Assembly: GCA_963921825.1 (NCBI GenBank)
Contig: OY997591.1
Span: 57,638,531 to 57,702,530 of the forward strand
Direction: 5' to 3'
DNA length: 64,000 nucleotides
Source of the DNA: Erodium maritimum
Taxonomy: Eukaryota; Streptophyta; Magnoliopsida; Geraniales; Geraniaceae
Shown piece by piece: positions 3,178 through 49,560 of the stretch. The notes beneath the pieces are model-generated. The model saw only the letters and a list, made by a program, of their open reading frames with translations. It was not told the DNA's origin and did no database searches. Both the position numbers and the translations under genes were made by a program. Every line of letters starts with the position of its first letter. Within the stretch, counting starts at the first letter, position 1.

Positions 3178-3192
3178 AATCACCAATACTTT
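3178..3192. repeat. Target-site duplication, left copy (LINE insertion)
   Basis: AATCACCAATACTTT at 3,178-3,192 is repeated at 5,026-5,040. The uninterrupted LTR homologue near 42,682 reads nearly the same sequence once, which confirms a target duplication made by the LINE at 3,193-5,025. Confidence 0.85.
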
Positions 3193-5025
3193 TTTTTTTG
3201 ATAAGCTCGAAAATTTTATTAATAAGACCGAATCCAAAAAGGGAATCGGAATGCCCTGGTTCAAGAAGAAACAGGGTAAAAGAGGTCAAAAGACCAGTAA
3301 CACGCTTACAGAGGAGCTCTACTACGGGAGAGCTAAAGGACAAACCTTATCCCCAAACAACAAAAATTCAAACAAAAAACAAAACTAATGAGATAGTTTC
3401 TGCCGAGCCTTATGAGACGCTCTCCACAAGGTCGAAATAGGAGGGGCGGCCTTGATGGCCCGTTCTCGAGTCAAGGAACGAGCTCTCGAACGGGTAACAA
3501 CAGTAAAAGTAGAAGGTCTACTCTGACGAGGTTGAAGAAGAGCGTCCTTCCAAGGACTGTCCTCCTTCTCTTCCGCTTCTACTACATCCTCCAACCCATC
3601 GGTAACCGATTCCGATGCAATCGAACCTGTTGAGCCTAACGAAACATCCACAACACTAGTTGAAGGGCCTGCTTCCACACCCCCCAACTCACATGGGCCA
3701 ACAACCAAAACCGGACTTGGATCAACCAATGTTCTTTGGGCTTCAGATGATGGGCCAGATACAGCACAACCCACATGTTGTGCGTTATTCAAAACGCAAG
3801 CGAGCTTCGGCGCAAATACCGAGATCGTTGTTGACGAAGCAACAGTATTCGGGCTCAAGGGATCAAAAGCCTGATCAGTTTGGGCTGTTGAGAGGCCCAA
3901 ATTTGTACCTTCCACAACATGATGCAAGCCCAATTTCAACACACCAGTACCAGATTTGGTAACTGCGTGATTCCCGCCTACCATCGCAGACGGGACCAGA
4001 TCTTCGCGATCTTCACTACTGCGATCTCTGCCAACCGATCCTTCCAAAAACAACTCATCAGATACGGAATTAAACCGAGAATCACGAGACATCCGGAAAA
4101 TCTGCGAACGAATTTCCTCTGTCACCCAATCGGCGATCAACGTCGATCTCCGGCCACCGTTGAGCAGAAGCTCTAGCACCTTCCCGTCCTCAATTTTGGC
4201 CTTCTGCACCTGTGAAGCTGCTAAATCCGAACCACCTCCTGCCATAACCTTATCTGGAGAAGCTTTAGAGTCCATGTCAAACATGCTCTGTTTTAGAGCT
4301 GAAAAACCTTTAATCGGAATTGGATCCTGTTCCGGACGGGCTAATGCCACAAAGAGGATATAGCCATTATACTTGAAGCCCTTATATATCTCGATGGCCT
4401 TCTGGGCAGCCGCCGGCGAGAAATAGTCCACGAATCCGAAACATCGTCCCTTCTTGTTTGGACGTTTAATTGCAATGGCCGACTTAATGGCTCCAAATTT
4501 CCCGAAGAAATTCCGAATCCAAACATCAGTGGAACCAAAGGGGATATTGTACACGAAAATTTTCGTACCTGAACCACCTTTGGTTGTGAGATCTGTTCTG
4601 GATTCAAGTGAAATAGCCTTTTCACCTTGAAGCGCAACAAAGACATCCAGAACCAGTACTAAATCGCCAGCGCCTGGTTCGACATGTCCCGGTTCGACTG
4701 GGACACCGGCATCGTCTACACAAGCATCCACGTCGGCGATACCCACTTTCCCGGAATCCTTTTGCACTGGCGCAGCTCGAGGCCGAGGATTCGAACAACA
4801 TCCACCAGTACCCAGTTTACTTCTCCCCTTTAAGCCATTACGTTTGCTAAACACTCTTTTACTCTGCGAAGACTTACTTGAAGCCGCCGGATCATGTCTT
4901 CTGGTCTTCTTACATTGATTACTCTCAATATCAACATAGTCTCTGTACAAAGAAAGCATAACCGTACAAAAAGAAGAAAAAGAGAGTAATGGAGCTTGAG
5001 GGAGAGAAGGAAATTCTCGTGCCAT
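3193..5025 (-). mobile_element. ORF1-only LINE insertion (half-LINE) in the copia A LTR
   Basis: A 1.83-kb minus-strand insertion with a 15-bp target-site duplication and a poly(A) tail (T-run from 3,190 on the plus strand). It contains a complete RRM-type ORF1, then about 190 bp of 3' UTR ending TTATTAATAAAATTTTCGAG, then the tail. No ORF2 (endonuclease or reverse transcriptase) is present between ORF1 and the 3' UTR. The 5' end coincides with the ATG of ORF1. The same ORF1-to-3'-UTR architecture recurs at 20,808-28,078, which argues for a non-autonomous family rather than one accidental deletion. Mobilisation would need reverse transcriptase from a full L1 relative. Confidence 0.8.
3385..5025 (-). 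CDS. LINE ORF1 protein with RNA-recognition motif, 546 codons, intact
   Basis: The longest open frame in the window. I choose the ATG at 5,025, because a longer frame starting at 5,034 would use a TTG lying in the target duplication. Residues about 40-95 are basic with cysteines. An RRM spans about 154-232: RNP2 is IFVYNI (156-161), RNP1 is GRCFGFVD (193-200), and the domain ends near ALARPE. The remainder is acidic or low complexity with a conserved tail, WKDALLQPRQSR...TVVTRSRARSLTRE, which also occurs at 21,049-21,258. RRM-bearing ORF1 is known from the BNR-type L1 subclade of plants, where ORF1p binds element RNA. Here it is followed directly by the 3' UTR. The function as an RNA-binding retrotransposition protein is inferred from the family. 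It is not a host splicing factor, because it sits inside a LINE with its own target duplication and poly(A). Confidence 0.8.
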   Translation of the reverse strand: MAREFPSLPQAPLLSFSSFCTVMLSLYRDYVDIESNQCKKTRRHDPAASSKSSQSKRVFSKRNGLKGRSKLGTGGCCSNPRPRAAPVQKDSGKVGIADVDACVDDAGVPVEPGHVEPGAGDLVLVLDVFVALQGEKAISLESRTDLTTKGGSGTKIFVYNIPFGSTDVWIRNFFGKFGAIKSAIAIKRPNKKGRCFGFVDYFSPAAAQKAIEIYKGFKYNGYILFVALARPEQDPIPIKGFSALKQSMFDMDSKASPDKVMAGGGSDLAASQVQKAKIEDGKVLELLLNGGRRSTLIADWVTEEIRSQIFRMSRDSRFNSVSDELFLEGSVGRDRSSEDREDLVPSAMVGGNHAVTKSGTGVLKLGLHHVVEGTNLGLSTAQTDQAFDPLSPNTVASSTTISVFAPKLACVLNNAQHVGCAVSGPSSEAQRTLVDPSPVLVVGPCELGGVEAGPSTSVVDVSLGSTGSIASESVTDGLEDVVEAEEKEDSPWKDALLQPRQSRPSTFTVVTRSRARSLTRERAIKAAPPISTLWRASHKARQKLSH

Positions 5026-5829
5026 AATCACCAATACTTTAATCCATGTCTTCCCTACTTAGTGCTAACTAATCAAGATCTTGATTAATTATTTCCATGG
5101 GCCTCTTGGAACATGGCCCGTGGCCATTCCTAACGAGGTACCGTGACGCGCTCATCGCCTTCAAGCCTTCCATACTGGAAATGTCCAACACTGTCACGCC
5201 CCAAATTCAGTAAAACCGAACCTGGAACGTGAACGTTTTAAAACAATAAAACAATGAAACCTGTTTTGGATAAACACTTTAAAATCTCCATTTAATTAAT
5301 CAAAATAATATTTACAACTTAAAAATATGTCCCAACACGTGGACAAAAGTACAAGGTATCCGTCACTAGACTCAAAAGATAAAAACCCGGACTCCGCTCC
5401 TAGCTCCACAAGCTTCGAGAGCTCACCTAGTCCGTCCTGTGATCAGTACTTGTGGGAAAAGCAGCTAGGGGTGAGCGTTCGCTCACCACCACAGATAACA
5501 GACTGACTACGGCATAATTAACAGACAATGCCGGTAACACCAACAACAAACTCAACACCGGGGATCACTGTCCCCAACTCAAGTACTCCGACTGACACAC
5601 ACCCACGGTGACCTTCCTCGAATGACTCGACACTTGACACGTAAAGTAGACCCGACACAACGATCACGACCTCTTCCAAGGACTCAAACAAAAGATACGC
5701 AACACCAAACAAGATCACAAAGGATCGCACACCAAACAAGATCACAAAGGATCGCACACCAAACAAGATCACAATTGATCGCATACCAGCTGCTCAGTAA
5801 CCTCTCCCACTCACACGAACACGGATCAG

Positions 5830-19600: not shown

Positions 19601-20807
19601 CTTATGTACATGGCTTACCATATTTGTTACCCTAGCTCAACCTCAGGCTGAGAATCGTAGTTGGGTCCAACAATTTTCAACTATGGCTCGTCACTATGTA
19701 GGTGCTCCGGTAATGCGCACAACACCCACATATGTCGTCCAAACCTACTACCCTGCTTTCTCATGGATGCTCCGTTAATGCGCATGACACCCATAGGACG
19801 GGGAGGTAGTAAGGTGTTGATAATTGGGAGGTACCGGACATGACCCGTTTTTAGTTGTCTGGTTGTGTTTAAAACTTTGGCACGTCCTAGATGCGATGAG
19901 CACATCAACTACATTCCAAATGCAATGATGCTCAAATTACATCCAATGTAATTCTTTCTTTGAACCCGTCAACTACATGTAATGCAATGACGGTTCTAAG
20001 GGCTCACATACAATGATCAAAAACCAATTTTATCTTTGCATGTGAGGTGATATGCTCGGTAATAAAGTTATGCGTGCAATTCTAATCCAAGCATAAAGTG
20101 ATAAATGTGTACATAACAACCCCCTAAACTAACTCCCACTAGCTTCTTGAGCTCCACTAACACCAAGTCGATGTCAACACCCGAAAAGCCACCAAATGAC
20201 CTTTTCGCCCTTTCTTCATCCTGAGAAAAATATTAAAATTTAATGCACGACTCGCAGGTTGGGAATTAATAAATATTAAAAATAAATGGTTCGACTACCA
20301 CACCTCGAAAAAATAACTACACGCCAACTCTAACGACTCGCATGCCGTGAAAAGCGACAAATAATTAAAGCGAGCTCGGGGCTATTATATACACCATGCC
20401 AAAATTAAATCACACATTGTGTTATCAAACATCATGTGATTTTCTGGTTTTAATTAATAGCCATGTTTCGAAAATTTTGATGCTCGGTTTATCCAAAACT
20501 GTTCAAAATCGAAACTTTTGAATATTTGATTTTCGAGTTCGTCATGAAGGTTCCAAACTCGTCGTGACTAACAAAATGGTTTGGCCCCGGCATATCAACC
20601 ATCCAATGGTCATGCTTGGCCTAGCTCCGTCCAACGGAGCCTCGTTCCGTCCCGGTTTCGGCTCCCCGAGAGTCCCGCTCCCGAGACCCGAACAATCAAA
20701 CTTTTTTAAAATTTCCAGATTTGAAATAATTTTCAAAAATTCATTTTACATGCATTAAATCCATAAACAAGAATTTAAAACATGTTATCAAACAATTTAG
20801 AAAAACT
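16640..20807 (-). pseudogene. copia A internal region, first copy (fossil)
   Basis: Minus-strand copia domains: reverse-transcriptase parts about 16,812-17,099 (RKCFSIKYLGDA) and 17,455-17,655 (LWLRAMRKEMQPL); GAG-pre-integrase/integrase about 17,966-18,445 (RCEACLMGKMTKAPF, FITFTDDYSKYGYVYSM); gag C-terminal region about 18,700-19,000; gag N-terminus about 19,127-19,387 (LNGTNYLDWYRILRIVLKSE). The 19,388-20,807 stretch matches the copia B leader. It is broken, with several breaks. Confidence 0.8.
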
Positions 20808-21299
20808 ATATGCTAAATTGGGTTGTGTTTCAGGCCCATCTTTGGTGGAGTTTGATTGTGGGGATCCTGCTAAAGTTAAGTTACTTGTCAAACAAGTATC
20901 ACAGGTAAATGCGGTTCTGGAGTATACTGATTCTCAGCCCGGTGTGACCCAAGGTCAATTGGGTTGAGAGGTATTAGGCCCTTTACCTGTTGAGGATGGT
21001 GGGGTAGTTTCGGCGCGTCTTACAACTTCGGACCCAGTCTTCGAAAGGTTGGAGGATACGGTGGAAGTAGAGGAGAGTGATAACAGTCTGTGGAAGGATG
21101 CCCTCCTTCAACCTCGTCATAGCCGGTCTTCTACTTATACTGTTGTTACTCGTTCGAGAGCTCGTTCTTTGACTCGGGAACATACCGTCAGGGCTGCGCC
21201 TCCTATTCCGACCTTGTGGAAATCGTCTCATAAGGCTCGGCTAAATTCAGCTCTCTAGTTTTTTTCGGTTTTTTCTGTTTTTGGGATAGGGATTGTCCC
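20808..21299 (+). mobile_element. ORF1-only LINE, 5' part (plus), split by a LARD element
   Basis: A plus-strand fragment of the same LINE family as 3,193-5,025. It starts inside ORF1 (5'-truncated) and encodes the conserved C-terminal tail (SLWKDALLQPRHSRSSTYTV, then RARSLTREHTV) ending at 21,258, with one in-frame stop near 20,967. It passes into 3' UTR (GGGATAGGGATTGTCCC), where the LARD element is inserted. The LINE tail resumes near 28,020 and ends in poly(A) at 28,078. TATATGCTAAA at 20,808 and again at 28,078-28,088 is its target duplication. No ORF2 is present. Confidence 0.75.
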
Positions 21300-22182
21300 T
21301 GTCACGCCCCAAATCCGGTTTTGACCGAATTCGAGACGTGAACTAAAACGATAATAAATTTAACGGAAAGTAAAGCCAACAAGTCTCAAATAGTAGTTTA
21401 CAACTTTAAACAACGTTGCGAGTCACAGCTCGGTAAAAACAACGGTAAAAAGACTATACGTCTCTAGACACTAGCACAAATCTCCGTCAGCTCCCTAGCC
21501 TCGAGAATCCTGCCAGTACAAGTCCCGCTCAACACCTGAAACACAATAAAGTAAGGGGGTGAGCTTACGCTCAGTAGGAAAAGTAGTTAAGGATCTGAAA
21601 CTCAGTTCATCACCACAGGTAACCGTCCAATTAGGGCATACTAGTAACGCACCACTCTTAGAAACAAATAAACCATTACTCCCAGACAACACTTGGCCTT
21701 CACTCAGGCACAACCCGTCAAACAACTCACAACGAACCGAACTCACTACCACTTCCCACAATCAGCTCTTGACACCCACCACCTAACAATTCTCAAAGGA
21801 CAACGCCCACGGTTATCTTACAACCAACCACACGTGCGAACTCGCACTGTAACACAGGAATCAGGTACAACATCACCTCAAGTCCCCCAACACTCTCACA
21901 AGACCAAAGTCTCACTTAACCCAATGCACAAAGCCCAACAATACGCTTCCCCATTACTGCCCATTTCCACAACCTTAAACGTACTTATACAAATGCACAC
22001 AGCCAACCAATGAGAACAAAGCACACAGCAAGACACACACAGATGTCGTAAGACAGCACACAACCAAACAGCCAGAATAAGGCATGGCCGAGACACACAC
22101 AGATGTCGTCTAACGGCATAAGTCATACCACCGGATGCACACAGCCACTTATATCGTACTGGACCATACAACATCAGTCCCA

Positions 22183-22546
22183 ATATCTTCCTCCGCACAC
22201 AGACGAAGGGTTCCACGCACCCAGACGTGGGGAAAAATCTTCTTCCGCACACAGACGAAGGGTTCCACGCACACAGACATGGGGAAATATCTTCCTCCGC
22301 ACATAGATGAAGGGTTCCACGCACACAGACGTGGGGAAATATCTTCCTCCGCACACAGACGAAGGGTTCCACGCACACAGACGTGGGGCAATATCTTCCT
22401 CCGCACACAGACGAAGGGTTCCACGCACACAGACGTGGGGCAATATCTTCCTCCGCACACAGACGAAGGGTTCCACGCACACAGACGTGGGGAAATATCT
22501 TCCTCCGCACACAGACGAAGGGTTCCACGCACACAGACGTGGGGCA
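22183..22546 (+). repeat. 52-bp minisatellite, 7 copies
   Basis: Units centred on AGACGAAGGGTTCCACGCAC start at 22,201, 22,253, 22,305, 22,357, 22,409, 22,461 and 22,513, an exact 52-bp period with few mismatches. 52 is not a multiple of three, so each strand shows long repetitive open frames in several phases. These are by-products of the repeat, not genes. The array lies in the LARD 3' LTR. Confidence 0.95.
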
Positions 22547-23389
22547 TCTCTCACCACACGTACAAGATCGGTACACATCTCGGTCAAACATCGTCTTGGA
22601 CCGAGAGTCATCGAGTACTGATCACGCCATCCTTGGCCTCGATACACTTCACTAGAACTATCCCTCAGTGTAAGTTCACTCCGGATACGCCGTGTCTTGG
22701 AACACCCCAAAACAGGGTATAATACACAGCATAAACCACTGATGGTCTCGGTATACCAACCGGACCATCTCAACATAGCACACAACCGGTCTATCACTCA
22801 CCCGGTCATATCACAACCAAGGGTTCACATTATCAAACATGGCACACTTGCCCACACACAGTCACAACATGCAACACCGAGTATAATCTTACTTAGACTC
22901 TCACACAACGATTATAGCACACAACACGCAATCCTAGGGCTTGACATGGCCCATTTACCAGCACGGCAATTTTCCCAAGTATTGAAAGAAGTTAACGCAA
23001 GTAACTAGTGAATCTCGTCCTACATGTTACTAGACTTATTCGTTTAATCATTTAAGTAAAGTATTCGTTCCTATATGCCAACTAGGACCTTTCCGGTTAT
23101 TATTAAAACCTAATCATGCATACTAGTAACTTTCCGTAATTAAAGCGGTATCCGCTACTTTCCCTACCTCAACCAAAGAACAACCGCTACGTCTCCTAGC
23201 TGCTGACGTCCTGGCTTGCTACCTCCGGTCTTCTCTTCGATCGAAGCCGGACTCTAATTTAAAACGAAAGCCACAATCAAAAACGGTTTCAAAGATAAAT
23301 TAAAAGTTACGACGGTTTCGATTTAAGTTCAACAGTTGTCATTTAAACCCGAGCGGGCAAAAACGGGATTAACGACGAATCGGGTTCGA

Positions 23390-23545
23390 GTACTCGAATA
23401 CAGAACCCGGTGCACGTTTCCCGAGGTACGGTTACCGATACACTGATCTTGAGGCACGGGTTTTGAGGTACGAGTTTTGAGGTACGAGTTTCGTGGCACG
23501 ATTCCTGAGGTGCGGGTTTCGTGGCACGATTCCTGAGGTACCGAT
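23390..23545 (-). repeat. Short tandem/inverted GC-rich array in LARD LTR
   Basis: Repeats of the type GAGGTACGAGTTT and CGTGGCACGATTCCTGAGGT, about 15-40 bp apart, many ending in TGAGG(T/C)AC. The array occupies a place in the LTR similar to that of the GTCACGG palindrome array at 50,330-50,495 in the second solo LTR. Confidence 0.65.
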
Positions 23546-25530
23546 TCAACGTTCCACTTTTGTCCCATTTTCAGTCCGGTTTAAACGACGTTTCAAGGTA
23601 CTCAGATTCGTTCAAACGACCAAATAACAACCTTTTTAAGATTATTTTTAATCCCTTTTCAATTTAACTCAGATTTTCGTTTTTTTACAAGTTGAATCCT
23701 TTAATCTCTTCAGTTAAACAACTTCAACAACTTGTCCAGATCCAAACGGTTTTTCGTTTCATCACGCCCAGATTCGAAAAGGAGCTCGTGAACCAAAAGA
23801 AACAGAAGAAGAAGAAGAAGAAAGAGGGGTGTTCGGGTCCGAAAACTGACCGGTCACCGGCGGAGATGTCGGCGACCAACACAGCACGTTTATATTTTTC
23901 GATTCTCACCGTGGGAAAAAGGAGGCGGCGGAAGACGACGGGAACTCGCCTCAGATCCGGACGAGAGGCGAACGCCGGTGACGTCTGAAACTTGGGCGGT
24001 GGTTTGGGTTTGAACGTGGACGGCGAGGGGGAAGCTCGAACGATGAGGGTACATGAGACGGTGCCGGAGTCTGTGAGAGAAGAGGAGGAGGCGGGGGTTT
24101 CGGGGCTACGCGAGAAGGAGGGGGAGAAACAGCTCGGTGGCGTGGCCGGCGAGCTGTGGCTAGACGGGAAGGAGGCCGGCGATGGAGAGAGGGAAGGAGC
24201 TCGGCGAGGTTGTGGTGGTCGGAGGGGAGATGAAGGTCTGCCGTGAGTTTAGGAGAAGACGATGGAGGTAGAGAGAGAGAAGTCTGGCGGTAGAGAGAGA
24301 AGGCAAAATGGGGTTGAAAACACTAATTTTGCTTTTTAAACCGAGGCACAGACTGGGCTTGGGCCCAGAACCGGGATCGACGTCTTCTTGGGCTTCTCGG
24401 CCCAAATAGAGATGGCCTGGCGCGGGTTGGCCTGGTTCGGGTCGGGTTGTTGGTCGTGTCAGGCCCGCCAGTCCAGCCTTCCCTCTTTTTTTTCTTTTTT
24501 TTTCTTTTTAAACGAATCAAGAGTTAATCCAATTTTTGACCTCAACGCTCCGATCGAATAAAATTAAATAAATTAAAATCTTTTCCGAAGTGGTCTTCAC
24601 GATCTACCCCCCTTAAAAGAATTTCGTCCTCGAAATTTAAAACGAACGCGCTCCACTTAACCCCAACTCAGGGAACGTCCGATTAAAACTTCAAGTCCAC
24701 CAACCCTCAAGCACGCGGAAAACACTTAAGCCAGTTAGTCGATACTGAAATCCTTCGTCGGTTGAGACGTCACACCGACACACGCAACTTGGTCGCGATA
24801 CCCTATACCGGAACCGTCTATCGGTGTAAGTATCACACCGGAAAAAAATTTCTCACCTCGCACTCAAAACGGATCCAACACACGGACACTCCTCCTCGGC
24901 TACTCACTCGTTTAACCAAGTATCACGCTCCTAACAAATAAAAGAAGTCCACGTCCCGTTACTCGGACTATCGTCATCGAACTCCAAACGTAGTCACGCC
25001 CTGACCAACCACCCACAGTAACACAAGTAAACAACACGCAAACTCAACCAGTTTACAGGTTGATTCACCCACAGTACCACGAAACTGAACACACTACGAG
25101 TACCAGTCCCTCAGGCTCCGAACGGCTTGGGTACCTCGCGCGTATCTCATCCTTGCGCTTCCGTGTCAACTCTACGCGGTTCTTAATCGTCCACGGTCAC
25201 GCGACCCTTCAGTCGCTTCTCGAGCAACTTGGGACCACTCTGGTCACTATTAAACCTCAAGTGTGCCCTGCTTGGGCAAATGCCTGACCTACCATCCAAC
25301 GCTTCGTGCGGTTCCATATTGTCATTGGCCTGAAAGCGTTGTGGTAGTCGTACTCGGTGATTTGTTTCCGGATACCTCGTGAAGTACTCCCACTTCTACC
25401 ATACACTACACACACTCGTCCAACCACAACGTACTCAATCGGGGTGTCAAGACGCCAGAACCGCATCAAGGTTCTACTCTTAGACTCCCACTTCTCATCA
25501 CGTATAAAGAACACCGAAGAAGGCGATGCA

Positions 25531-25573
25531 TGTGGGTTATGGGCCCATCACGCTTCCGCTGCGCCACTCTGAT
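25531..25573 (-). other. 5' half of initiator tRNA-Met embedded in the LARD interior
   Basis: The minus strand reads ATCAGAGTGGCGCAGCGGAA, continues to GGGCCCATAACCCACA, and then diverges. This matches nucleotides 1-43 of plant initiator tRNA-Met as I remember it, with one difference (GTGATGGG for GTGGTGGG). The D arm with a Pol III A-box-like TGGCGCAGCGG and the anticodon CAT are present. The variable, T and acceptor 3' parts are absent, so it is not a tRNA gene. The host element itself uses initiator tRNA-Met as primer. Confidence 0.8.
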
Positions 25574-27247
25574 CTCATCGTCACTCAGTCACCTCTCCTT
25601 ACCGGGCTGACGGTTACTAGTGTTGTTGCGGCCCTCCGCCGCTCGGGCACTCGTCTCCGATGTCCCGGCTGCCGACAGCGTAAACACACTGGTCCCCCGT
25701 TCCAACACGAAGGGACCTCCCGATGTTCCTGATCATGTCTGCTTCATACGGTCAGACAGTGCCTGAGGCCGGGAAACCCTACGGTTCTCTAACCCTCTCA
25801 AGTCTCGAGTCTCGTACAATCCCGCAGCACTGCTCAGTCGCTAACGAGTCTTACGGGCCCTCGCGGTCTTTCGGTGACCTCGTTCCACTGTTGTCGTTGT
25901 ATCCACCATCTCAAAACTACAACCGATTCATCGGGTTGATAACTTGACCTAAACTACGGGCTTGGGGCCCTCTCTCAAACTTCTTGCATTCATTTGCCTC
26001 GACGGCCACCTAAACTGGTGCAACGGTCCATGCCGTAACTCTGGTCTCGCACCTCATCTCTGATACTCCATCCCGTGGCAGCCCGGGACCTGCTGGTGTT
26101 GTTCCTCTTAACCTCCCCAGTGGGAGTAACTCGGGCACTTGTGCCCCCAACGGCTTACCTCTCCTACCTCGAGGTGCCACGACGCAAGTACCCTCCACAC
26201 GGGTAACGCCCACATTTAGTTTCTTACTCTTAAAAACGACACGTTTAAAATAACTAACGCCACACACAGTCCAGTCACTACTACTCATAGTAATAATATA
26301 CTTAATATAGTATAGTCACACAGATGCACACAGCAAAGAAGTTAGCACACTAGTGCTTCACACAGACTTATATACACACAGATCATATATACACACAACA
26401 GGATTACACACGATTTCACACTTAAGCCACATAGGATACAGTTACACTACAGGCAACCACAAAGCACACTCATATTTCAGTTTCAAATTCTTAGCAGTCC
26501 TCTTTCTAACATAACATTCATGTTGACATCGCGTCGTTACAACCTGATTCAGACGTCCCCGAACTACGTTGTAACCACTTGGCATCCCCACAATCACGTC
26601 TAGCTACAGTGGCCCCTATAGCTGAATCGTGATGGTACATACACTTCAGTTTCTGTAGAAAATCGGGCATGACCCGTTTGTAAATTAAGTCAACCATCCG
26701 CTTATGCGGGACAACCAACATTAGCTGCACACAACACTCAATCACAATTATACCACACAGCAGTTTATCGCAACTTTAACACCTCGGTCTCGGTGATATT
26801 ACTCTTACCGTTCGACCGAGTCCACACTTGGAAAACAGTTCAACTCCAACAATAACCGCAACACACACAAGTTCACCAAAATTCCACGGCACTTGGGTCG
26901 GGCGTTTCACCAATCAAACACGGCCGACCGAGACGGCAACCCACATAACAATTTAATCAACCAACACGTCATAACTAGCCCGAGCCTCGCTCGGTAACCA
27001 ACCTCGATCTCAACCGATCGGCATCACGGATCCACTGAGGTGTACAGTACACAATGATTAAGGTTCAAATCAAATACGGTAAAACTTAAACAACACACTT
27101 AACAAACGAGGCTCTTGTCGTTTGGACTCTACGCACGGGATATTTCCAACTCGCGTCACTGAGCACTACGACTTGAACCACCTAAATCTACCCACCTAAT
27201 TGACGTACGGTCCGAGGTTTGAAAAATCACTTCAAATTGCAACCAGG

Positions 27248-27259
27248 CTCTGATACCAA
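27248..27259 (-). other. Primer-binding site of the LARD element
   Basis: The minus strand reads TGGTATCAGAGC, complementary to the 3' end of initiator tRNA-Met, just after the LTR end CGTGACA plus a short spacer. It fixes the element's orientation as minus. The copy in the second unit is at 41,122-41,133. Confidence 0.85.
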
Positions 27260-28019
27260 ATTGTCACGCCCTAAATCCGGTTTTGACCGAATTCGAGACG
27301 TGAACTAAAACGATAATAAATTTAACGGAAAGTAAAGCCAACAAGTCTCAAATCGTAGTTTAAAACTTTAAACAACGTCGCGAGTCACAGCTCGGTAAAA
27401 ACAACGGTAAAAAGACTATACATCTCTAGACACTAGCCCGAATCCCCATCAGCTCCCTAGCCTCGAGAATCCTGCCAGTGGTGTTTGGGTCCGAAAACCG
27501 ACCGGTCACCGGCGGAGATGCTAGCGACCAACACATCACGTTTATATTTTTCGATTCTCACCGTGGGAAAAAGGAGGTGGCGGAAGATGGCGGGAACTCG
27601 CCTCAAATCCGGACGAGAGGCGAACGTCGGTGACGTCTGAAACGCCGACGACGATTTGGGGTTGAATGGGGACGGCGAGGGGGAAGCTCGGACGATGAGG
27701 GTACAGGCGACGGTGGCGGAGGCCGTTAGAGAAGAGGATGCGGGGGTTTCGGGGCTACGCGAAAAGGAGGGGGAGAAACAGCTCGGTGGCTTGGCCGGCG
27801 AACTGTGGCTGGACGGGAAGGAGGCCGACGATGGAGAGAGGGAAGGAGCTCGGCGAGGTTGTGGTGGTCGGAGGGGAGATGAAGGTATGCTGTGAGTTGA
27901 GGAGAATATGATGGAGGTAGAGAGAGAGAAGTCTGGCGGTAGAGAGAGAAGGCAAAATGGGGTTGAAAACCCTAATTTTGCTTTTTAAACCGAGGCTCAG
28001 ACTGGGCTTGGGCCCAGAA

Positions 28020-34681: not shown

Positions 34682-35173
34682 ATATGCTAAATTGGGTTGT
34701 GTTTCAGGCCCATCTTTGGTGGAGTTTGATTGTGGGGATCCTGCTAAAGTTAAGTTACTTGTCAAACAAGTATCACAGGTAAATGCGGTTCTGGAGTATA
34801 CTGATTCTCAGCCCGGTGTGACCCAAGGTCAATTGGGTTGAGAGGTATTAGGCCCTTTACCTGTTGAGGATGGTGGGGTAGTTTCGGCGCGTCTTACAAC
34901 TTCGGACCCAGTCTTCGAAAGGTTGGAGGATACGGTGGAAGTAGAGGAGAGTGATAACAGTCTGTGGAAGGATGCCCTCCTTCAACCTCGTCATAGCCGG
35001 TCTTCTACTTATACTGTTGTTACTCGTTCGAGAGCTCGTTCTTTGACTCGGGAACATACCGTCAGGGCTGCGCCTCCTATTCCGACCTTGTGGAAATCGT
35101 CTCATAAGGCTCGGCTAAATTCAGCTCTCTAGTTTTTTTCGGTTTTTTCTGTTTTTGGGATAGGGATTGTCCC
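34682..35173 (+). mobile_element. ORF1-only LINE, 5' part, second copy
   Basis: Duplicate of 20,808-21,299. The ORF1 C-terminal tail lies at 34,923-35,132. The LINE tail resumes near 41,894 and ends at 41,952. Confidence 0.75.
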
Positions 35174-36056
35174 TGTCACGCCCCAAATCCGGTTTTGACC
35201 GAATTCGAGACGTGAACTAAAACGATAATAAATTTAACGGAAAGTAAAGCCAACAAGTCTCAAATAGTAGTTTACAACTTTAAACAACGTTGCGAGTCAC
35301 AGCTCGGTAAAAACAACGGTAAAAAGACTATACGTCTCTAGACACTAGCACAAATCTCCGTCAGCTCCCTAGCCTCGAGAATCCTGCCAGTACAAGTCCC
35401 GCTCAACACCTGAAACACAATAAAGTAAGGGGGTGAGCTTACGCTCAGTAGGAAAAGTAGTTAAGGATCTGAAACTCAGTTCATCACCACAGGTAACCGT
35501 CCAATTAGGGCATACTAGTAACGCACCACTCTTAGAAACAAATAAACCATTACTCCCAGACAACACTTGGCCTTCACTCAGGCACAACCCGTCAAACAAC
35601 TCACAACGAACCGAACTCACTACCACTTCCCACAATCAGCTCTTGACACCCACCACCTAACAATTCTCAAAGGACAACGCCCACGGTTATCTTACAACCA
35701 ACCACACGTGCGAACTCGCACTGTAACACAGGAATCAGGTACAACATCACCTCAAGTCCCCCAACACTCTCACAAGACCAAAGTCTCACTTAACCCAATG
35801 CACAAAGCCCAACAATACGCTTCCCCATTACTGCCCATTTCCACAACCTTAAACGTACTTATACAAATGCACACAGCCAACCAATGAGAACAAAGCACAC
35901 AGCAAGACACACACAGATGTCGTAAGACAGCACACAACCAAACAGCCAGAATAAGGCATGGCCGAGACACACACAGATGTCGTCTAACGGCATAAGTCAT
36001 ACCACCGGATGCACACAGCCACTTATATCGTACTGGACCATACAACATCAGTCCCA

Positions 36057-36420
36057 ATATCTTCCTCCGCACACAGACGAAGGGTTCCACGCACCCAGAC
36101 GTGGGGAAAAATCTTCTTCCGCACACAAACGAAGGGTTCCACGCACACAGACATGGGGAAATATCTTCCTCCGCACATAGATGAAGGGTTCCACGCACAC
36201 AGACGTGGGGAAATATCTTCCTCCGCACACAGACGAAGGGTTCCACGCACACAGACGTGGGGCAATATCTTCCTCCGCACACAGACGAAGGGTTCCACGC
36301 ACACAGACGTGGGGCAATATCTTCCTCCGCACACAGACGAAGGGTTCCACGCACACAGACGTGGGGAAATATCTTCCTCCGCACACAGACGAAGGGTTCC
36401 ACGCACACAGACGTGGGGCA
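36057..36420 (+). repeat. 52-bp minisatellite, second copy
   Basis: Same seven units as 22,183-22,546, differing by one base (36,128). Confidence 0.95.
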
Positions 36421-39404
36421 TCTCTCACCACACGTACAAGATCGGTACACATCTCGGTCAAACATCGTCTTGGACCGAGAGTCATCGAGTACTGATCACG
36501 CCATCCTTGGCCTCGATACACTTCACTAGAACTATCCCTCAGTGTAAGTTCACTCCGGATACGCCGTGTCTTGGAACACCCCAAAACAGGGTATAATACA
36601 CAGCATAAACCACTGATGGTCTCGGTATACCAACCGGACCATCTCAACATAGCACACAACCGGTCTATCACTCACCCGGTCATATCACAACCAAGGGTTC
36701 ACATTATCAAACATGGCACACTTGCCCACACACAGTCACAACATGCAACACCGAGTATAATCTTACTTAGACTCTCACACAACGATTATAGCACACAACA
36801 CGCAATCCTAGGGCTTGACATGGCCCATTTACCAGCACGGCAATTTTCCCAAGTATTGAAAGAAGTTAACGCAAGTAACTAGTGAATCTCGTCCTACATG
36901 TTACTAGACTTATTCGTTTAATCATTTAAGTAAAGTATTCGTTCCTATATGCCAACTAGGACCTTTCCGGTTATTATTAAAACCTAATCATGCATACTAG
37001 TAACTTTCCGTAATTAAAGCGGTATCCGCTACTTTCCCTACCTCAACCAAAGAACAACCGCTACGTCTCCTAGCTGCTGACGTCCTGGCTTGCTACCTCC
37101 GGTCTTCTCTTCGATCGAAGCCGGACTCTAATTTAAAACGAAAGCCACAATCAAAAACGGTTTCAAAGATAAATTAAAAGTTACGACGGTTTCGATTTAA
37201 GTTCAACAGTTGTCATTTAAACCCGAGCGGGCAAAAACGGGATTAACGACGAATCGGGTTCGAGTACTCGAATACAGAACCCGGTGCACGTTTCCCGAGG
37301 TACGGTTACCGATACACTGATCTTGAGGCACGGGTTTTGAGGTACGAGTTTTGAGGTACGAGTTTCGTGGCACGATTCCTGAGGTGCGGGTTTCGTGGCA
37401 CGATTCCTGAGGTACCGATTCAACGTTCCACTTTTGTCCCATTTTCAGTCCGGTTTAAACGACGTTTCAAGGTACTCAGATTCGTTCAAACGACCAAATA
37501 ACAACCTTTTTAAGATTATTTTTAATCCCTTTTCAATTTAACTCAGATTTTCGTTTTTTTACAAGTTGAATCCTTTAATCTCTTCAGTTAAACAACTTCA
37601 ACAACTTGTCCAGATCCAAACGGTTTTTCGTTTCATCACGCCCAGATTCGAAAAGGAGCTCGTGAACCAAAAGAAACAGAAGAAGAAGAAGAAGAAAGAG
37701 GGGTGTTCGGGTCCGAAAACTGACCGGTCACCGGCGGAGATGTCGGCGACCAACACAGCACGTTTATATTTTTCGATTCTCACCGTGGGAAAAAGGAGGC
37801 GGCGGAAGACGACGGGAACTCGCCTCAGATCCGGACGAGAGGCGAACGCCGGTGACGTCTGAAACTTGGGCGGTGGTTTGGGTTTGAACGTGGACGGCGA
37901 GGGGGAAGCTCGAACGATGAGGGTACATGAGACGGTGCCGGAGTCTGTGAGAGAAGAGGAGGAGGCGGGGGTTTCGGGGCTACGCGAGAAGGAGGGGGAG
38001 AAACAGCTCGGTGGCGTGGCCGGCGAGCTGTGGCTAGACGGGAAGGAGGCCGGCGATGGAGAGAGGGAAGGAGCTCGGCGAGGTTGTGGTGGTCGGAGGG
38101 GAGATGAAGGTCTGCCGTGAGTTTAGGAGAAGACGATGGAGGTAGAGAGAGAGAAGTCTGGCGGTAGAGAGAGAAGGCAAAATGGGGTTGAAAACACTAA
38201 TTTTGCTTTTTAAACCGAGGCACAGACTGGGCTTGGGCCCAGAACCGGGATCGACGTCTTCTTGGGCTTCTCGGCCCAAATAGAGATGGCCTGGCGCGGG
38301 TTGGCCTGGTTCGGGTCGGGTTGTTGGTCGTGTCAGGCCCGCCAGTCCAGCCTTCCCTCTTTTTTTTCTTTTTTTTTCTTTTTAAACGAATCAAGAGTTA
38401 ATCCAATTTTTGACCTCAACGCTCCGATCGAATAAAATTAAATAAATTAAAATCTTTTCCGAAGTGGTCTTCACGATCTACCCCCCTTAAAAGAATTTCG
38501 TCCTCGAAATTTAAAACGAACGCGCTCCACTTAACCCCAACTCAGGGAACGTCCGATTAAAACTTCAAGTCCACCAACCCTCAAGCACGCGGAAAACACT
38601 TAAGCCAGTTAGTCGATACTGAAATCCTTCGTCGGTTGAGACGTCACACCGACACACGCAACTTGGTCGCGATACCCTATACCGGAACCGTCTATCGGTG
38701 TAAGTATCACACCGGAAAAAAATTTCTCACCTCGCACTCAAAACGGATCCAACACACGGACACTCCTCCTCGGCTACTCACTCGTTTAACCAAGTATCAC
38801 GCTCCTAACAAATAAAAGAAGTCCACGTCCCGTTACTCGGACTATCGTCATCGAACTCCAAACGTAGTCACGCCCTGACCAACCACCCACAGTAACACAA
38901 GTAAACAACACGCAAACTCAACCAGTTTACAGGTTGATTCACCCACAGTACCACGAAACTGAACACACTACGAGTACCAGTCCCTCAGGCTCCGAACGGC
39001 TTGGGTACCTCGCGCGTATCTCATCCTTGCGCTTCCGTGTCAACTCTACGCGGTTCTTAATCGTCCACGGTCACGCGACCCTTCAGTCGCTTCTCGAGCA
39101 ACTTGGGACCACTCTGGTCACTATTAAACCTCAAGTGTGCCCTGCTTGGGCAAATGCCTGACCTACCATCCAACGCTTCGTGCGGTTCCATATTGTCATT
39201 GGCCTGAAAGCGTTGTGGTAGTCGTACTCGGTGATTTGTTTCCGGATACCTCGTGAAGTACTCCCACTTCTACCATACACTACACACACTCGTCCAACCA
39301 CAACGTACTCAATCGGGGTGTCAAGACGCCAGAACCGCATCAAGGTTCTACTCTTAGACTCCCACTTCTCATCACGTATAAAGAACACCGAAGAAGGCGA
39401 TGCA

Positions 39405-39447
39405 TGTGGGTTATGGGCCCATCACGCTTCCGCTGCGCCACTCTGAT
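39405..39447 (-). other. 5' half of initiator tRNA-Met, second copy
   Basis: Identical to 25,531-25,573, as part of the duplicated unit. Confidence 0.8.
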
Positions 39448-42040
39448 CTCATCGTCACTCAGTCACCTCTCCTTACCGGGCTGACGGTTACTAGTGTTGT
39501 TGCGGCCCTCCGCCGCTCGGGCACTCGTCTCCGATGTCCCGGCTGCCGACAGCGTAAACACACTGGTCCCCCGTTCCAACACGAAGGGACCTCCCGATGT
39601 TCCTGATCATGTCTGCTTCATACGGTCAGACAGTGCCTGAGGCCGGGAAACCCTACGGTTCTCTAACCCTCTCAAGTCTCGAGTCTCGTACAATCCCGCA
39701 GCACTGCTCAGTCGCTAACGAGTCTTACGGGCCCTCGCGGTCTTTCGGTGACCTCGTTCCACTGTTGTCGTTGTATCCACCATCTCAAAACTACAACCGA
39801 TTCATCGGGTTGATAACTTGACCTAAACTACGGGCTTGGGGCCCTCTCTCAAACTTCTTGCATTCATTTGCCTCGACGGCCACCTAAACTGGTGCAACGG
39901 TCCATGCCGTAACTCTGGTCTCGCACCTCATCTCTGATACTCCATCCCGTGGCAGCCCGGGACCTGCTGGTGTTGTTCCTCTTAACCTCCCCAGTGGGAG
40001 TAACTCGGGCACTTGTGCCCCCAACGGCTTACCTCTCCTACCTCGAGGTGCCACGACGCAAGTACCCTCCACACGGGTAACGCCCACATTTAGTTTCTTA
40101 CTCTTAAAAACGACACGTTTAAAATAACTAACGCCACACACAGTCCAGTCACTACTACTCATAGTAATAATATACTTAATATAGTATAGTCACACAGATG
40201 CACACAGCAAAGAAGTTAGCACACTAGTGCTTCACACAGACTTATATACACACAGATCATATATACACACAACAGGATTACACACGATTTCACACTTAAG
40301 CCACATAGGATACAGTTACACTACAGGCAACCACAAAGCACACTCATATTTCAGTTTCAAATTCTTAGCAGTCCTCTTTCTAACATAACATTCATGTTGA
40401 CATCGCGTCGTTACAACCTGATTCAGACGTCCCCGAACTACGTTGTAACCACTTGGCATCCCCACAATCACGTCTAGCTACAGTGGCCCCTATAGCTGAA
40501 TCGTGATGGTACATACACTTCAGTTTCTGTAGAAAATCGGGCATGACCCGTTTGTAAATTAAGTCAACCATCCGCTTATGCGGGACAACCAACATTAGCT
40601 GCACACAACACTCAATCACAATTATACCACACAGCAGTTTATCGCAACTTTAACACCTCGGTCTCGGTGATATTACTCTTACCGTTCGACCGAGTCCACA
40701 CTTGGAAAACAGTTCAACTCCAACAATAACCGCAACACACACAAGTTCACCAAAATTCCACGGCACTTGGGTCGGGCGTTTCACCAATCAAACACGGCCG
40801 ACCGAGACGGCAACCCACATAACAATTTAATCAACCAACACGTCATAACTAGCCCGAGCCTCGCTCGGTAACCAACCTCGATCTCAACCGATCGGCATCA
40901 CGGATCCACTGAGGTGTACAGTACACAATGATTAAGGTTCAAATCAAATACGGTAAAACTTAAACAACACACTTAACAAACGAGGCTCTTGTCGTTTGGA
41001 CTCTACGCACGGGATATTTCCAACTCGCGTCACTGAGCACTACGACTTGAACCACCTAAATCTACCCACCTAATTGACGTACGGTCCGAGGTTTGAAAAA
41101 TCACTTCAAATTGCAACCAGGCTCTGATACCAAATTGTCACGCCCTAAATCCGGTTTTGACCGAATTCGAGACGTGAACTAAAACGATAATAAATTTAAC
41201 GGAAAGTAAAGCCAACAAGTCTCAAATCGTAGTTTAAAACTTTAAACAACGTCGCGAGTCACAGCTCGGTAAAAACAACGGTAAAAAGACTATACATCTC
41301 TAGACACTAGCCCGAATCCCCATCAGCTCCCTAGCCTCGAGAATCCTGCCAGTGGTGTTTGGGTCCGAAAACCGACCGGTCACCGGCGGAGATGCTAGCG
41401 ACCAACACATCACGTTTATATTTTTCGATTCTCACCGTGGGAAAAAGGAGGTGGCGGAAGATGGCGGGAACTCGCCTCAAATCCGGACGAGAGGCGAACG
41501 TCGGTGACGTCTGAAACGCCGACGACGATTTGGGGTTGAATGGTGACGGCGAGGGGGAAGCTCGGACGATGAGGGTACAGGCGACGGTGGCGGCGGCCGT
41601 TAGAGAAGAGGATGCGGGGGTTTCGGGGCTACGCGAAAAGGAGGGGGAGAAACAGCTCGGTGGCTTGGCCGGCGAACTGTGGCTGGACGGGAAGGAGGCC
41701 GACGATGGAGAGAGGGAAGGAGCTCGGCGAGGTTGTGGTGGTCGGAGGGGAGATGAAGGTATGCTGTGAGTTGAGGAGAATATGATGGAGGTAGAGAGAG
41801 AGAAGTCTGGCGGTAGAGAGAGAAGGCAAAATGGGGTTGAAAACCCTAATTTTGCTTTTTAAACCGAGGCTCAGACTGGGCTTGGGCCCAGAACCCCGAT
41901 TCCTTCTTGGAGTTGGTCTTATCAATAAAAATTTGGAGCTTATCAAAAAAATATATGCTAAAAACAAAAGTTTCAAGCAAAAACAAAACTTCCTCAACAC
42001 CGTCTTGTGAATACCGAAGGTAGCACGGCTCTAATACCAC

Positions 42041-43910: not shown

Positions 43911-43913
43911 ACC

Positions 43914-44289
43914 AGGACCAGAGCATTGTCTGTCAATGAAGCACCAATTCTGTAGCAGGTACCATATATCAAAAGGCAGGTCTTCTCAAGAAATCACCAA
44001 GGATTGTGTTTGAAGTAACTTCACTAAACCCTCACATATCCAAGCAAAAAACCATAACATGTCAATAAGATCAGCACTGATCTAATATCAACCCAAGAGA
44101 GAGGTAAACTGAAAAACACTCAAAACCTAGCAAAAACTCTACCTTCTCACAAAAACAAGTGGACTTAGATACATATTAGTATATGAAACTACCCATTCAC
44201 GGTTAAAAACACAAAAACAACAAAGAACCAGAATTAACAATGCCCTTACCAAACTCACATGTCACTTCCCCAAGAACACCCCCCCCCCC

Positions 44290-44320
<31 letters not shown>

Positions 44321-44386
44321 ACACCTAAAAACCACCCCAAGAACACCCAAATCAACCAAAACCAAAGAGTAACCATAGAAGATCTC
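43914..44386. repeat. Right copy of ~470-bp direct repeat with poly-C and (CA)n
   Basis: Homologous to 2,076-2,541 in the same orientation. It has 28 C at 44,279-44,306 followed directly by a CA microsatellite to about 44,324. It continues into the large LINE at 44,387, so it is probably that LINE's 3' UTR. Confidence 0.7.
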
Positions 44387-44405: not shown

Positions 44406-47400
44406 TTAATTCCTAATCTTTATTCTGTAGCAAGACTTAAGGGAGGAAATCCAAGGTTGGAAAGAGAAAGATTGATATTTATAAAAAAGACTCCATTCCA
44501 AATTGAAAGAGTAATTCTGAATTTTTTCTAATAAGTTCAAAGGAGAGGCTAAAACATTATTGAATATCAAATCATTCCTGGAGAGCCTGATATGCCAAAG
44601 AGTGATAAATGCAATATTCCTCCATTGTTTGTTGGATGCTCTAGGACTAAGTTCCATCCAAGAGTAAATGACTTCCAAGAATACACCCATCTGAGCTCCT
44701 TTGATGCCCCACCAATCCAACACTACAGACCAAACTAACCAAGATCTATGACAATTTAATGGCATGTGATTGATCTCTTTAAAGTCTTAGCCACAGGGGC
44801 AAAGGGAATCCTGCAGGTTAAAATTTAAACCTCTACCATCTAAAAATAACTTAGTGGGCAAGGCATTATGGCAAGTTAGCCAGGAAAATGCAGAGATTTT
44901 AGGAGGTAAAATAAGAGACCAGAGAAGTTTTGCCCAAGGAAGATCTTGTGTATCAGTTTCTTCTAAAAAGCCATACATCTTCTTTACTTTAAAACCAACT
45001 TCATGAATTTTCCGCACCATTTTATCCTCTCATGTATCTTGTAGGCTGAAGAGGTTGAGAAAATCAGATACGGCTCTGAACTGTCCAATTTCCCAGCCCC
45101 TAAATTGTCTTCTAAAGTTTAAAAATCAGTTGTCATTGTTCCAAAAAAGAGCTACCTTCTACTTTTTCTGCAAGCATAGGTGAAAATGTTTGTGGAACCT
45201 ATCTTTAAGAGGAACATCAATCAACCAAATGTCACTTCATAAATCCACCCTTAGGCCATTATTCACAAACCACTCCAAACCGGAGAATCCAACTGCATTG
45301 CTGAATTTTTTGTCAGATAATAATGACTGAATGTGGCTGAGAAAATTTTGATTCCCTGAAATTTTAATATAGGAAAGATCCCAATCTTCTGCACACCAAC
45401 CATACTTAGCACAAATGAATTTTTTCCAAAAAGAATTAGTCTCAATTGTAAATCTCCACCACCACTTAGGCAAGAGTGTTGAGTTCATGATATATGGATT
45501 TTTTTTTATCCCAAGGCCACCTTTCTCTCTAGAAGTGAAAACCAGTCCCCATATAACTTTGTGAAGCACTTTTTTTGTTACGGGTCCATTTCATAAAAAT
45601 CTCCTCTGCCACATTTCCATTCCTCTTAACACTTTCTTTGGGGCTTTAGAGAGAGACATATAGTATAGGGGAAGGGAAGAGAGAGAGGATTTGATTAAAG
45701 TAATCCTCCCTCCAAAATTGAGTGTCTTGGCCTGCCACATATTAAGTTTTCTTTTGAACTTTTGTAAAATAGGGACCCATGTTTTATACCTTCTTGGATC
45801 GGCTCCTAACTGAAATCCCAGATAGTCTAGTGGGAGGAAAGTTGATTCACAACCAAGAATATCATACACTTGAGATAAACTGATAGTAGAAGGATTAATG
45901 AGTACCACTTTGGATTGACTGAAGTTGATCTTCAATCCTGAAGCTAACTGAAAAGCCTTGAGAGATGACTTGATGTTATGGACATGAGGAATTTTAGATT
46001 TCAAAATGATGAGGGTATCATCAGCAAACTGCAAGTGAGAGATAGTATGACCCAAATTGCCACACTTGATCCCCTCTAAATTTCTTGAGGAGATACCTTC
46101 CTCTAAAATAAGATGGATGCCTTCAGCTGCAAGAGCAAAGAGGAGTGGAGAAAGGGAAACAACCTTTCCTCAATCCCCTAAAGAGTTTGAAGTCTGCAGA
46201 GGGTGATCCATTAACCAATACTGAAGCCCAAGCCTCAAAACAATAAGTCATCCACATTCTCCAAATTCTGCCAAAACCCATATAAACCAGTACCTTGTCC
46301 ACAAAATCTCAATCTAGATGATCATAAGCCTTCTCAAAATTTGCCTTAAAAATAATAACCTCTTCTTTTGATGATTTTAATGAATGAATAAGCTCGTATT
46401 CTATTATTAGGCCATCTAGAGTTTGCCTCCCTGCAATGAAGCATGTCTGCACATCACTAACTAGTTGATTCATTACTGTCTTTAATCTTGCAGCAAGGAT
46501 TTTAGAGATAATTTTATACAAAGTCCCAACTAAACTGATAGGTTTGAATTCATCAAAAGGTGTAGGGATAGGAACTTTAGGGAACAAAGTGAATAAGGAG
46601 GATGTATTCCTTTTCCCAGAAGACCAGTAAGATGAAATTGATGGCAAAAAGTACAGATATCTTCTTGTAAAAAAATCTCAACCCTTCTGAAAGAATTTTA
46701 GTGTGTAACCATCAAGACATGGAGCTTTCTCCCCATCACAATCCATCATTGCAAAGTGGATCTCTGCCTCAGAGAAAGGTCTTTCTAAGAATGAAGCTTT
46801 AGCAAGAGAGATACAACTGAAAGGCAATTGAGAGACATCCAAAAGGATATAGTATGATTTCTGAAACCTAGCCCCAAAGTGACTGCTAGCTGCCTTCTTA
46901 ATATTAGATGGAGAAGAGAATGTGAGGCCTCCTTCTACAATTTGAGAAATTTTCTTCCTTGATGTTGAATAATTATCCAACAAGTGATAATATCTAGTAC
47001 ACCTCTCCCCATTCTTAATCAACTTGTCTCTAGATTTTTGTCTTCAGACTTTGGTCAAGGCTTTCAATTTCTGAATTAATAGAGCACCTGTATGTGCTCT
47101 CAAAGATCTCTCATAGGGTGTTAGCTCTCTAATCTCCACAACACCATCAAGCTCATTAATCTGCAATTGTCGAGCATCAATACTTTTCTTTAGAAAACCA
47201 AACACCTCAATATTCCACTGCTTTAAAAATTCTTTTAGTTTCTTCAATTTCATCCAAATAACAAATTGTGGTTCCCCAACAATCTTCAAAGAAGTCCAAA
47301 AAAGTGCCACATCAGTTAGGAAGAGATGATGATCAAGCCAAGCATTTAAAATTTTAAAAGGTCTAGGACCCCAGTCAATGAAATGATCAGCAAGAATTAT

Positions 47401-48055: not shown

Positions 48056-48063
48056 CCTCAGAG

Positions 48064-49279: not shown

Positions 49280-49560
49280 ATCGTACCGGAACACGACATC
49301 GGTCTAGATATCTTCCCGGACCCGCACATCGGGGTGAAATACATACATCGTACCGGAATACACCATCGGCCTAGATGTCTTCCCGGACACACAGCATCGG
49401 GGTGAAACAAATAATACATCATACCGGAATACCCATCGGTCTAGATGTCTTCCCGGAAACGCACATCGGGGTAAGCAAACAATACATCATACCGGAAACG
49501 CACATCGGTCTAGATGTCTTCCCGGAAACGCACATCAGGGTAAACCTCATCACACACATA
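49280..49560 (+). repeat. ~67-70-bp minisatellite, 4 copies
   Basis: Units with CATCGGTCTAGATGTCTTCC and CACATCGGGGTAA repeat, with TCTTCCCGGA anchors at 49,311, 49,378, 49,448 and 49,517. It occupies the LTR subregion that carries unrelated repeats in the other family members. Confidence 0.85.

What the first reader, a model, noticed from the sequence alone, without database searches (positions are those of the whole stretch)
3193..5025. ORF1-only LINE family with an intact RRM protein: a plant counterpart of mammalian HAL1
The insertion has a 15-bp target duplication, poly(A), a 546-codon open RRM ORF1 and a 3' UTR, but no endonuclease or reverse transcriptase. An independent copy at 20,808-28,088 has the same direct step from the ORF1 tail to the same 3' UTR, with its own 11-bp target duplication, so the ORF2-less form itself was mobile. 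Mammalian HAL1 elements (ORF1 kept, ORF2 lost) are the only close analogue I know. Keeping a long intact ORF1 in a non-autonomous element suggests that ORF1p helps in cis.
Basis: partly seen in the sequence, partly recalled or inferred. Interest (0 to 1): 0.75.

Follow-up and report, generated by a model that had tools for sequence, protein, structure and literature searches.

The report
ORF1-only LINE insertions, HAL1-like
Two independent jumping-gene insertions in this plant-like DNA carry only the RNA-binding half of a LINE element and lack its copying enzyme, so they were probably moved by a relative's enzyme, much as half-L1 elements are thought to be in mammals.

Summary
Copy 1 (3193-5025, minus strand) has a 15-bp target duplication, a poly(A) tail and an open 546-codon ORF with an RRM domain; paralogous target sites without it lie elsewhere in the window. 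Copy 2 (20818-28077) is a separate insertion with an 11-bp duplication, and its ORF1 tail, stop codon and 3' UTR run on directly as in copy 1 (a later LTR-type insertion splits the UTR). The 35-42 kb copy is a 99% duplicate of copy 2, not a third event. New here: a decayed ORF1 on the minus strand (54332-53177) shares copy 1's N-terminal motif and RRM, and an L1-like ORF2 follows on the same strand beyond an insertion. The protein is therefore most likely a LINE ORF1. ORF1 codons are constrained between copies 1 and 2 (dN/dS about 0.35, 68 codons). Copy 1 is young or selected. Best reading: a non-autonomous, ORF1-only L1 lineage mobilised in trans. Not shown: copy number, an ORF2-bearing parent, a cis role of ORF1p. 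The genome search did not complete. Recurrent retroposition of ORF2-skipped L1 transcripts remains the main rival.

The parts
3193..5025 (-). Copy 1: ORF1-only LINE insertion, 5' end at the ATG (5025), 3' end and poly(A) at about 3199-3193
3385..5025 (-). Intact ORF1, 546 codons, RRM at aa 156-222 (window about 4360-4560); no C..C....H....C knuckle
3193..3384 (-). 3' UTR of copy 1 (192 nt), strongly folding (z = -4.34), with a hairpin CCGATTCC...GGATTCGG just before AATAAA...CTTATC-poly(A)
3178..3192 (.). Target-site duplication of copy 1, AATCACCAATACTTT
5026..5040 (.). Target-site duplication of copy 1, second arm; nick context TTT/AA
20818..28077 (+). Copy 2: 5'-truncated, begins at the equivalent of ORF1 residue 418; stop codon 21256-21258; 3' UTR split by a later LTR-type insertion
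20807..20817 (.). Target-site duplication of copy 2, TATATGCTAAA
28078..28088 (.). Target-site duplication of copy 2, second arm
21300..28016 (-). LTR-type insertion nested in copy 2's 3' UTR (LTRs 704 of 754 aligned columns alike, a 2.3-kb insertion in the left LTR left out of the comparison); no matching target duplication
34692..41951 (+). Tandem (99%) duplicate of copy 2; not an independent insertion
53177..54332 (-). LINE-3: decayed ORF1 with the same N-terminal motif (54314-54252) and RRM (53865-53592) as copy 1
48718..53176 (.). Insertion with TG...CA ends and a CCAAC duplication, splitting LINE-3's ORF1; no terminal direct repeats were found in it
44406..48717 (-). LINE-3 (probable continuation): end of ORF1 and decayed L1-like ORF2 with two RVT_1 matches
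43911..44386 (-). Probable start of LINE-3's 3' UTR, cut by an LTR element; unlike copy 1's 3' UTR

Best explanation
These are insertions of a non-autonomous, ORF1-only derivative of an RRM-type L1 LINE. A source element that keeps ORF1 and the 3' UTR but has lost ORF2 is transcribed. Its polyadenylated RNA is probably coated by its own RRM-bearing ORF1p. The endonuclease/reverse transcriptase of an autonomous L1 then copies it by target-primed reverse transcription, starting from the 3' end (hairpin, AATAAA...CTTATC, poly(A)), which leaves target duplications and 5'-truncated copies. Shown: two independent insertions with target duplications and the same ORF1-stop-3'UTR continuity, homology of the protein to an ORF1 that lies upstream of an L1-like ORF2, codon constraint, and an intact ORF in copy 1. 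Inferred: a heritable ORF1-only source, supply of ORF2p in trans, and ORF1p binding its own RNA.
For: Copy 1 has a 15-bp duplication, poly(A) and paralogous sites without it. Copy 2 has its own 11-bp duplication and the same stop-to-UTR continuity. The copies differ by dS about 0.51, so the shared joint is not a recent duplicate. ORF1 tail dN/dS is 0.35, Fisher p 0.0025, differences by codon position 10/11/22. In a neutral simulation copy 1's ORF stays open in 24 of 400 runs at 1% change and 4 of 400 at 2%, so copy 1 is young or selected. LINE-3's ORF1 shares N-terminal motif and RRM (0 of 2000 shuffles for each of three pieces) and an ORF2 with RVT_1 matches follows on the same strand, across an insertion with a CCAAC duplication. 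The 3' UTR is at least as alike as the ORF tail (34/40 and 50/56 against 164/207) and its terminal hairpin can form in copy 2, as expected if a partner's RT reads it.
Against: Only two independent copies are in hand. No ORF2-bearing parent with this 3' UTR was found, so loss of ORF2 in a master is inferred. Copy 2 is 5'-truncated and shows only the ORF1 tail. Codon constraint could have acted in ORF2-bearing ancestors. Copy 1 begins exactly at its ATG, with no 5' UTR or promoter, so it need not be full length. Copy 2's target does not show the TTT/AA nick context of copy 1. LINE-3's link of ORF1 to ORF2 rests on strand, order and a 5-bp duplication; the frame is open across that joint in all three frames (57, 41 and 43 codons), so it proves nothing. 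The genome-wide count could not be made.
Confidence: 0.67

Rival explanations
1. No ORF1-only master exists. Autonomous L1 transcripts repeatedly lose ORF2 by splicing (or a similar RNA-level skip) and the shortened RNAs are retroposed, each insertion being a dead end.
For: It gives the same joint in independent copies at any divergence. Copies 1 and 2 differ by dS about 0.51, so they come from different source lineages.
Against: No splice signature can be read without the ORF2-bearing parent, so there is no direct evidence for it. In the window the 3'-end pattern (up to 3 mismatches) occurs only in copy 1, copy 2 and copy 2's duplicate, never behind an ORF2; one window is a small sample.
Confidence: 0.14
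2. The RRM ORF lies downstream of ORF2 in an unusual LINE, and both copies are ordinary 5'-truncated insertions.
For: Copy 2 is 5'-truncated, and 5' truncation is common in LINEs. Copy 1 has no 5' UTR.
Against: In LINE-3 the homologous ORF1 lies upstream of ORF2 on the same strand, if the two are one element. A random truncation would have to stop exactly at the ATG in copy 1.
Confidence: 0.08
3. These are processed retrocopies of a host RRM gene (possibly a domesticated ORF1) made by L1 enzymes.
For: Poly(A), target duplication and an intact ORF are also features of a retrocopy. The RRM matches solved host RRM proteins such as poly(A)-binding protein (E 9.9e-20).
Against: N-terminal motif and RRM are collinear with an ORF that an L1-like ORF2 follows. 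The 3' UTR is at least as alike as the coding tail. Two diverged copies lie in 64 kb.
Confidence: 0.08

Closest known systems
Mammalian HAL1 (half-L1)
   Same: ORF1 kept, ORF2 absent, poly(A), target duplications, dependence on another element's RT/EN (passages of PMC5322556, and PMC5753468)
   Different: HAL1 derives from mammalian L1. Here ORF1 is an RRM protein without a second Pfam domain, in a plant-like genome. HAL1 arose several times in mammals, so this would be a further, independent origin.
Drosophila HeT-A
   Same: Non-LTR element with Gag but no reverse transcriptase of its own, thought to use another element's enzyme, with Gag carrying the RNA to its target (passages of PMC5537684)
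   Different: HeT-A adds to chromosome ends and its Gag targets telomeres. The copies here are interspersed and have target duplications.
BNR-type plant L1 (RRM in ORF1)
   Same: RRM domain in ORF1 of a plant L1 (title seen in the reference lists of PMC5348765, and PMC3747384; lineage name in a table of PMC9033089)
   Different: Copies 1 and 2 carry no ORF2, so RT-based membership cannot be tested for them. I have not seen the BNR paper itself.
Plant L1 3' ends with a hairpin (monocot 1a lineage)
   Same: A hairpin close to the 3' end of the L1 RNA (passages of PMC3747384)
   Different: Whether the hairpin here is the same structure is unknown; it rests on two copies, and the original paper is not held.

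Membership tests
HAL1 (mammalian half-L1) | ORF1 present, ORF2 absent, in an element with poly(A) and target duplication | tested here: met
   copy 1; copy 2, ORF1 tail only
HAL1 (mammalian half-L1) | ORF2-less form recurs in independent insertions | tested here: met
   2 independent insertions; a third locus is a duplicate of copy 2
HAL1 (mammalian half-L1) | Derived from an L1 that has ORF2 | tested here: inconclusive
   ORF1 is homologous to LINE-3's ORF1, which an L1-like ORF2 follows, but LINE-3's 3' UTR differs and the direct parent was not found
HAL1 (mammalian half-L1) | Mammalian L1-type ORF1 (coiled coil, RRM, C-terminal domain; recalled) | tested here: inconclusive
   Only RRM_1 matched in Pfam; the structure model is unusable, mean pLDDT 31.6
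Plant RRM-ORF1 L1 (BNR-type) | RRM in ORF1 | tested here: met
Plant RRM-ORF1 L1 (BNR-type) | ORF2 of the BNR subclade | not testable with these tools
   Copies 1 and 2 have no ORF2; no reference sequences at hand
HeT-A | Gag only, no RT | tested here: met
HeT-A | Addition at chromosome ends in head-to-tail arrays | tested here: not met
   Interspersed insertions on opposite strands with target duplications and paralogous sites without them

The most novel reading that the evidence does not exclude
A long-lived plant lineage of ORF1-only L1 elements, diverged to dS about 0.5, in which ORF1 stayed under purifying selection although the element has no enzyme of its own. ORF1p would then be a cis-acting packaging protein that pays for itself in a parasite of a parasite, with a 3' hairpin that the partner's RT reads.
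Probability: 0.4. Interest if true: 0.68.

Novelty: new variant of a known kind. Interest (0 to 1): 0.5.

Why it matters
If it is a family, plants evolved the half-L1 strategy independently of mammals and of HeT-A. Whether ORF1p of a non-autonomous LINE acts in cis, and why such elements keep it, could then be tested in a plant. It would also supply intact RRM-type ORF1 sources whose protein may affect the L1s of the same genome, and a caution that RRM ORF1 genes in plant annotation can come from elements without ORF2.

Tried and rejected
Rejected or left open. (1) A CT-rich 5' leader with the true start at M23: the first 66 nt are the most pyrimidine-rich stretch of the ORF, but LINE-3 shares the peptide LSFxSFC..ML there and differs from copy 1 mostly at third codon positions (6/3/13), so it is coding. 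(2) 'The 44-48 kb LINE is an unrelated family', in my note: withdrawn. (3) LINE-type 3' ends at 1924 (segment D, + strand) and 54548 (segment C, + strand) as further ORF1-tail copies. Against the tails of copies 1 and 2, 129 and 75 of 2000 shuffles did as well for D, and 3 and 10 of 2000 for C (6 of 500 for C). Neither appears in a window-wide profile search listed to E 20, and other places in the window score higher. I do not count them. (4) A tail-like frame ending at 55722 (minus): E 3.9; best of the non-copy frames among 6747. My test used the wrong frame. In the right frame it beat 2000 of 2000 shuffles against copy 1's tail, but 288 of 2000 did as well against copy 2's. No LINE-type 3' end follows it in the list. 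I leave it as probably chance. (5) Segment B (54.33-53.18 kb) and C as one twin-primed ORF1-only copy: not excluded; the CCAAC duplication favours B as part of LINE-3.

Searches without result. ORF1 against 5.8 billion proteins: 2 generic RRM proteins among 7997 scored candidates. Its residues 300-546: none of 1896 candidates. Viral contigs: 10 pattern matches, no relative. Genome contigs: 39 pattern matches, no relative. 3'-end pattern: 0 in both collections. These collections are built from viruses, bacteria, archaea and metagenomes, so the misses say little about plants. Single-sequence structure model: unusable. Nine paper searches showed no title on an ORF1-only plant LINE; two of them matched no paper, two others listed only part of their matches (20 of 328, 25 of 31), I saw listings and some passages only, and most subscription journals are not held.

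Full report
What was claimed and what is there. Copy 1 lies on the minus strand at 3193-5025. It holds an open frame of 546 codons (3385-5025) with one Pfam domain, RRM_1, at residues 156-222 (E 2e-12), a 192-nt 3' UTR and a poly(A) tail. It is flanked by the exact 15-bp repeat AATCACCAATACTTT. Related repeat units in the same window show the target without the insertion. Four such sites, near 9.3, 14.9, 28.8 and 42.7 kb, were printed, each with one slightly diverged copy of the target; two of them (14.9 and 28.8 kb) are tandem duplicates of each other. In the blastn output as printed (cut at 6000 characters) flanks align on both sides at 28.8, 42.7 and 9.3 kb and on one side at 14.9 kb. In element orientation the nicked strand of copy 1 reads TTT/AA, the usual L1 endonuclease preference (recalled); copy 2's target does not show that context.

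Copy 2. On the plus strand, 20818-28077 is flanked by TATATGCTAAA. A paralogous place near 14.47 kb carries both flanks without the element, although it has diverged at the target itself. Copy 2 begins at the equivalent of ORF1 residue 418; 69 of 125 aligned residues agree, over 146 codons with one internal stop. The stop codon and the first part of the 3' UTR follow directly as in copy 1 (34 of 40 aligned bases), and the last part agrees at 50 of 56. Between these lies a younger LTR-type element, without a matching target duplication, and about 75 nt of UTR are missing there. The third occurrence, about 34692-41951, belongs to a 13,874-bp tandem duplication, 99% identical. So there are two independent events.

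Is the protein a LINE ORF1? A protein-level search of the window with copy 1's ORF1 finds a third, decayed relative on the minus strand: residues 138-230 (the RRM) at 53865-53592, E 2e-8, and residues 13-33 at 54314-54252, E 0.014. Three separate pieces (N-terminus and two halves of the RRM) each beat all of 2000 shuffles. The N-terminal stretch differs from copy 1 at 6, 3 and 13 first, second and third codon positions, so it is coding. This ORF is cut at 53177 by a stretch with TG...CA ends and the 5-bp duplication CCAAC. On the same strand there follows an ORF2 with two RVT_1 matches: E 4.2e-9, above Pfam's cut-off, and E 3.3e-6, 27.4 bits, just below the cut-off of 29.6. I scanned 20 frames, of 160 listed. 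No endonuclease family matched; that it is L1-like rests on motifs I recognise in the translation. Weak points of this link: the inserted stretch has no terminal direct repeats, its low end resembles the LTR end nested in copy 2 but its other end does not, and all three frames are open across the joint (57, 41 and 43 codons). I take ORF1 and ORF2 to be one LINE, probably. LINE-3 is not the direct parent: no copy-1-type tail appears there in a profile search, and its 3' UTR as far as present does not resemble copy 1's (local score 22, shuffle mean 22.2, maximum 33).

Age and selection. Copies 1 and 2 differ in the alignable ORF1 tail by dS about 0.51 and dN about 0.18 over 68 codons, ratio 0.35, Fisher p 0.0025 (a simple Nei-Gojobori style count, with sites treated as independent). 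In a neutral simulation (indels at 15% of the substitution rate, my assumption) copy 1's frame stayed open in 246, 114, 24, 11, 4, 0 and 0 of 400 runs at 0.2, 0.5, 1, 1.5, 2, 3 and 5% divergence. So copy 1 inserted recently or is selected, and its source had an intact ORF1. The 3' UTR is at least as alike as the coding tail (34/40 and 50/56 against 164/207, gaps left out). It folds better than 200 of 200 shuffles (z -4.34); its last 88 nt alone give z -2.52, with 3 of 200 shuffles as good. The terminal hairpin can form in copy 2 too, but copy 2's piece alone is not unusual (27 of 200 shuffles as good).

Mechanism. RNA with ORF1 and the 3' UTR but no ORF2 was reverse-transcribed into two unrelated targets, with target duplications and, once, 5' truncation. 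That is target-primed reverse transcription by enzymes supplied from elsewhere. The simplest source is an ORF1-only master that evolves on its own. The rival is repeated retroposition of ORF2-skipped transcripts of autonomous L1s. The shared joint at dS about 0.5 fits an old ORF2-less lineage, but a fixed splice would give the same joint. Copy 1's 5' end at the ATG leaves its promoter unexplained.

Comparison. HAL1 in mammals encodes only ORF1, has poly(A) and target duplications and depends on full-length LINEs (passages of PMC5322556); it arose several times (passages of PMC5753468). HeT-A of Drosophila has Gag and no RT (passages of PMC5537684), so HAL1 is not the only analogue. RRM-bearing ORF1 is known in plant L1 of the BNR type (a title in two reference lists; the lineage name in a table). 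Hairpins near the 3' end are described for one plant L1 lineage (passages of PMC3747384). Gag-only LTR elements in plants are a further analogue that I only recall; that paper is not held. Nine paper searches showed no title on an ORF1-only plant LINE; the library and the listings are partial, so novelty is not proven.

Limits. That the genome is a plant's is inferred from its repeats, not from any call. The search of the window's own genome did not complete in any of 29 attempts, so copy number, parent and phylogeny are open.

Noticed in passing
window 14904-30048 and 28778-43924: A 13,874-bp tandem duplication (99%) of LTR elements (Copia-type RVT_2 match at 10791-11138 in a related unit) with nested insertions, which also doubled copy 2.
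   Followed up: partly
window 1589-1930 (+): Short LINE-type 3' end (AATAAATTTCATTGCTTATC-poly(A)) with a 10-bp duplication AAACCCAAAG, inserted in what looks like another LINE's 3' UTR (1394-2541, minus). Its last codons weakly resemble copy 1's ORF1 tail.
   Followed up: partly
window about 54341-54555 (+): Poly(A)-ended segment abutting LINE-3's ORF1 start head to head, with a weak ORF1-tail-like frame (VLTRCRGR...STLWR...stop). Possibly a twin-primed (inverted) insertion.
   Followed up: partly
window 55722-55892 (-): Frame with an isolated resemblance to copy 1's ORF1 tail (0 of 2000 shuffles against copy 1, 288 of 2000 against copy 2; window-wide E 3.9). Probably chance.
   Followed up: partly
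window 22026-22637 and 35900-36511: Tandem array of a 52-bp unit that stays open in frames on both strands (ORFs of 132-231 aa; repeats), inside an insertion in the left LTR of the element nested in copy 2.
   Followed up: no
window 43911-44386 and 2075-2541: Probable 3' UTR of the LINE-3 family with a long G run in both copies; an LTR element abuts one of them.
   Followed up: partly
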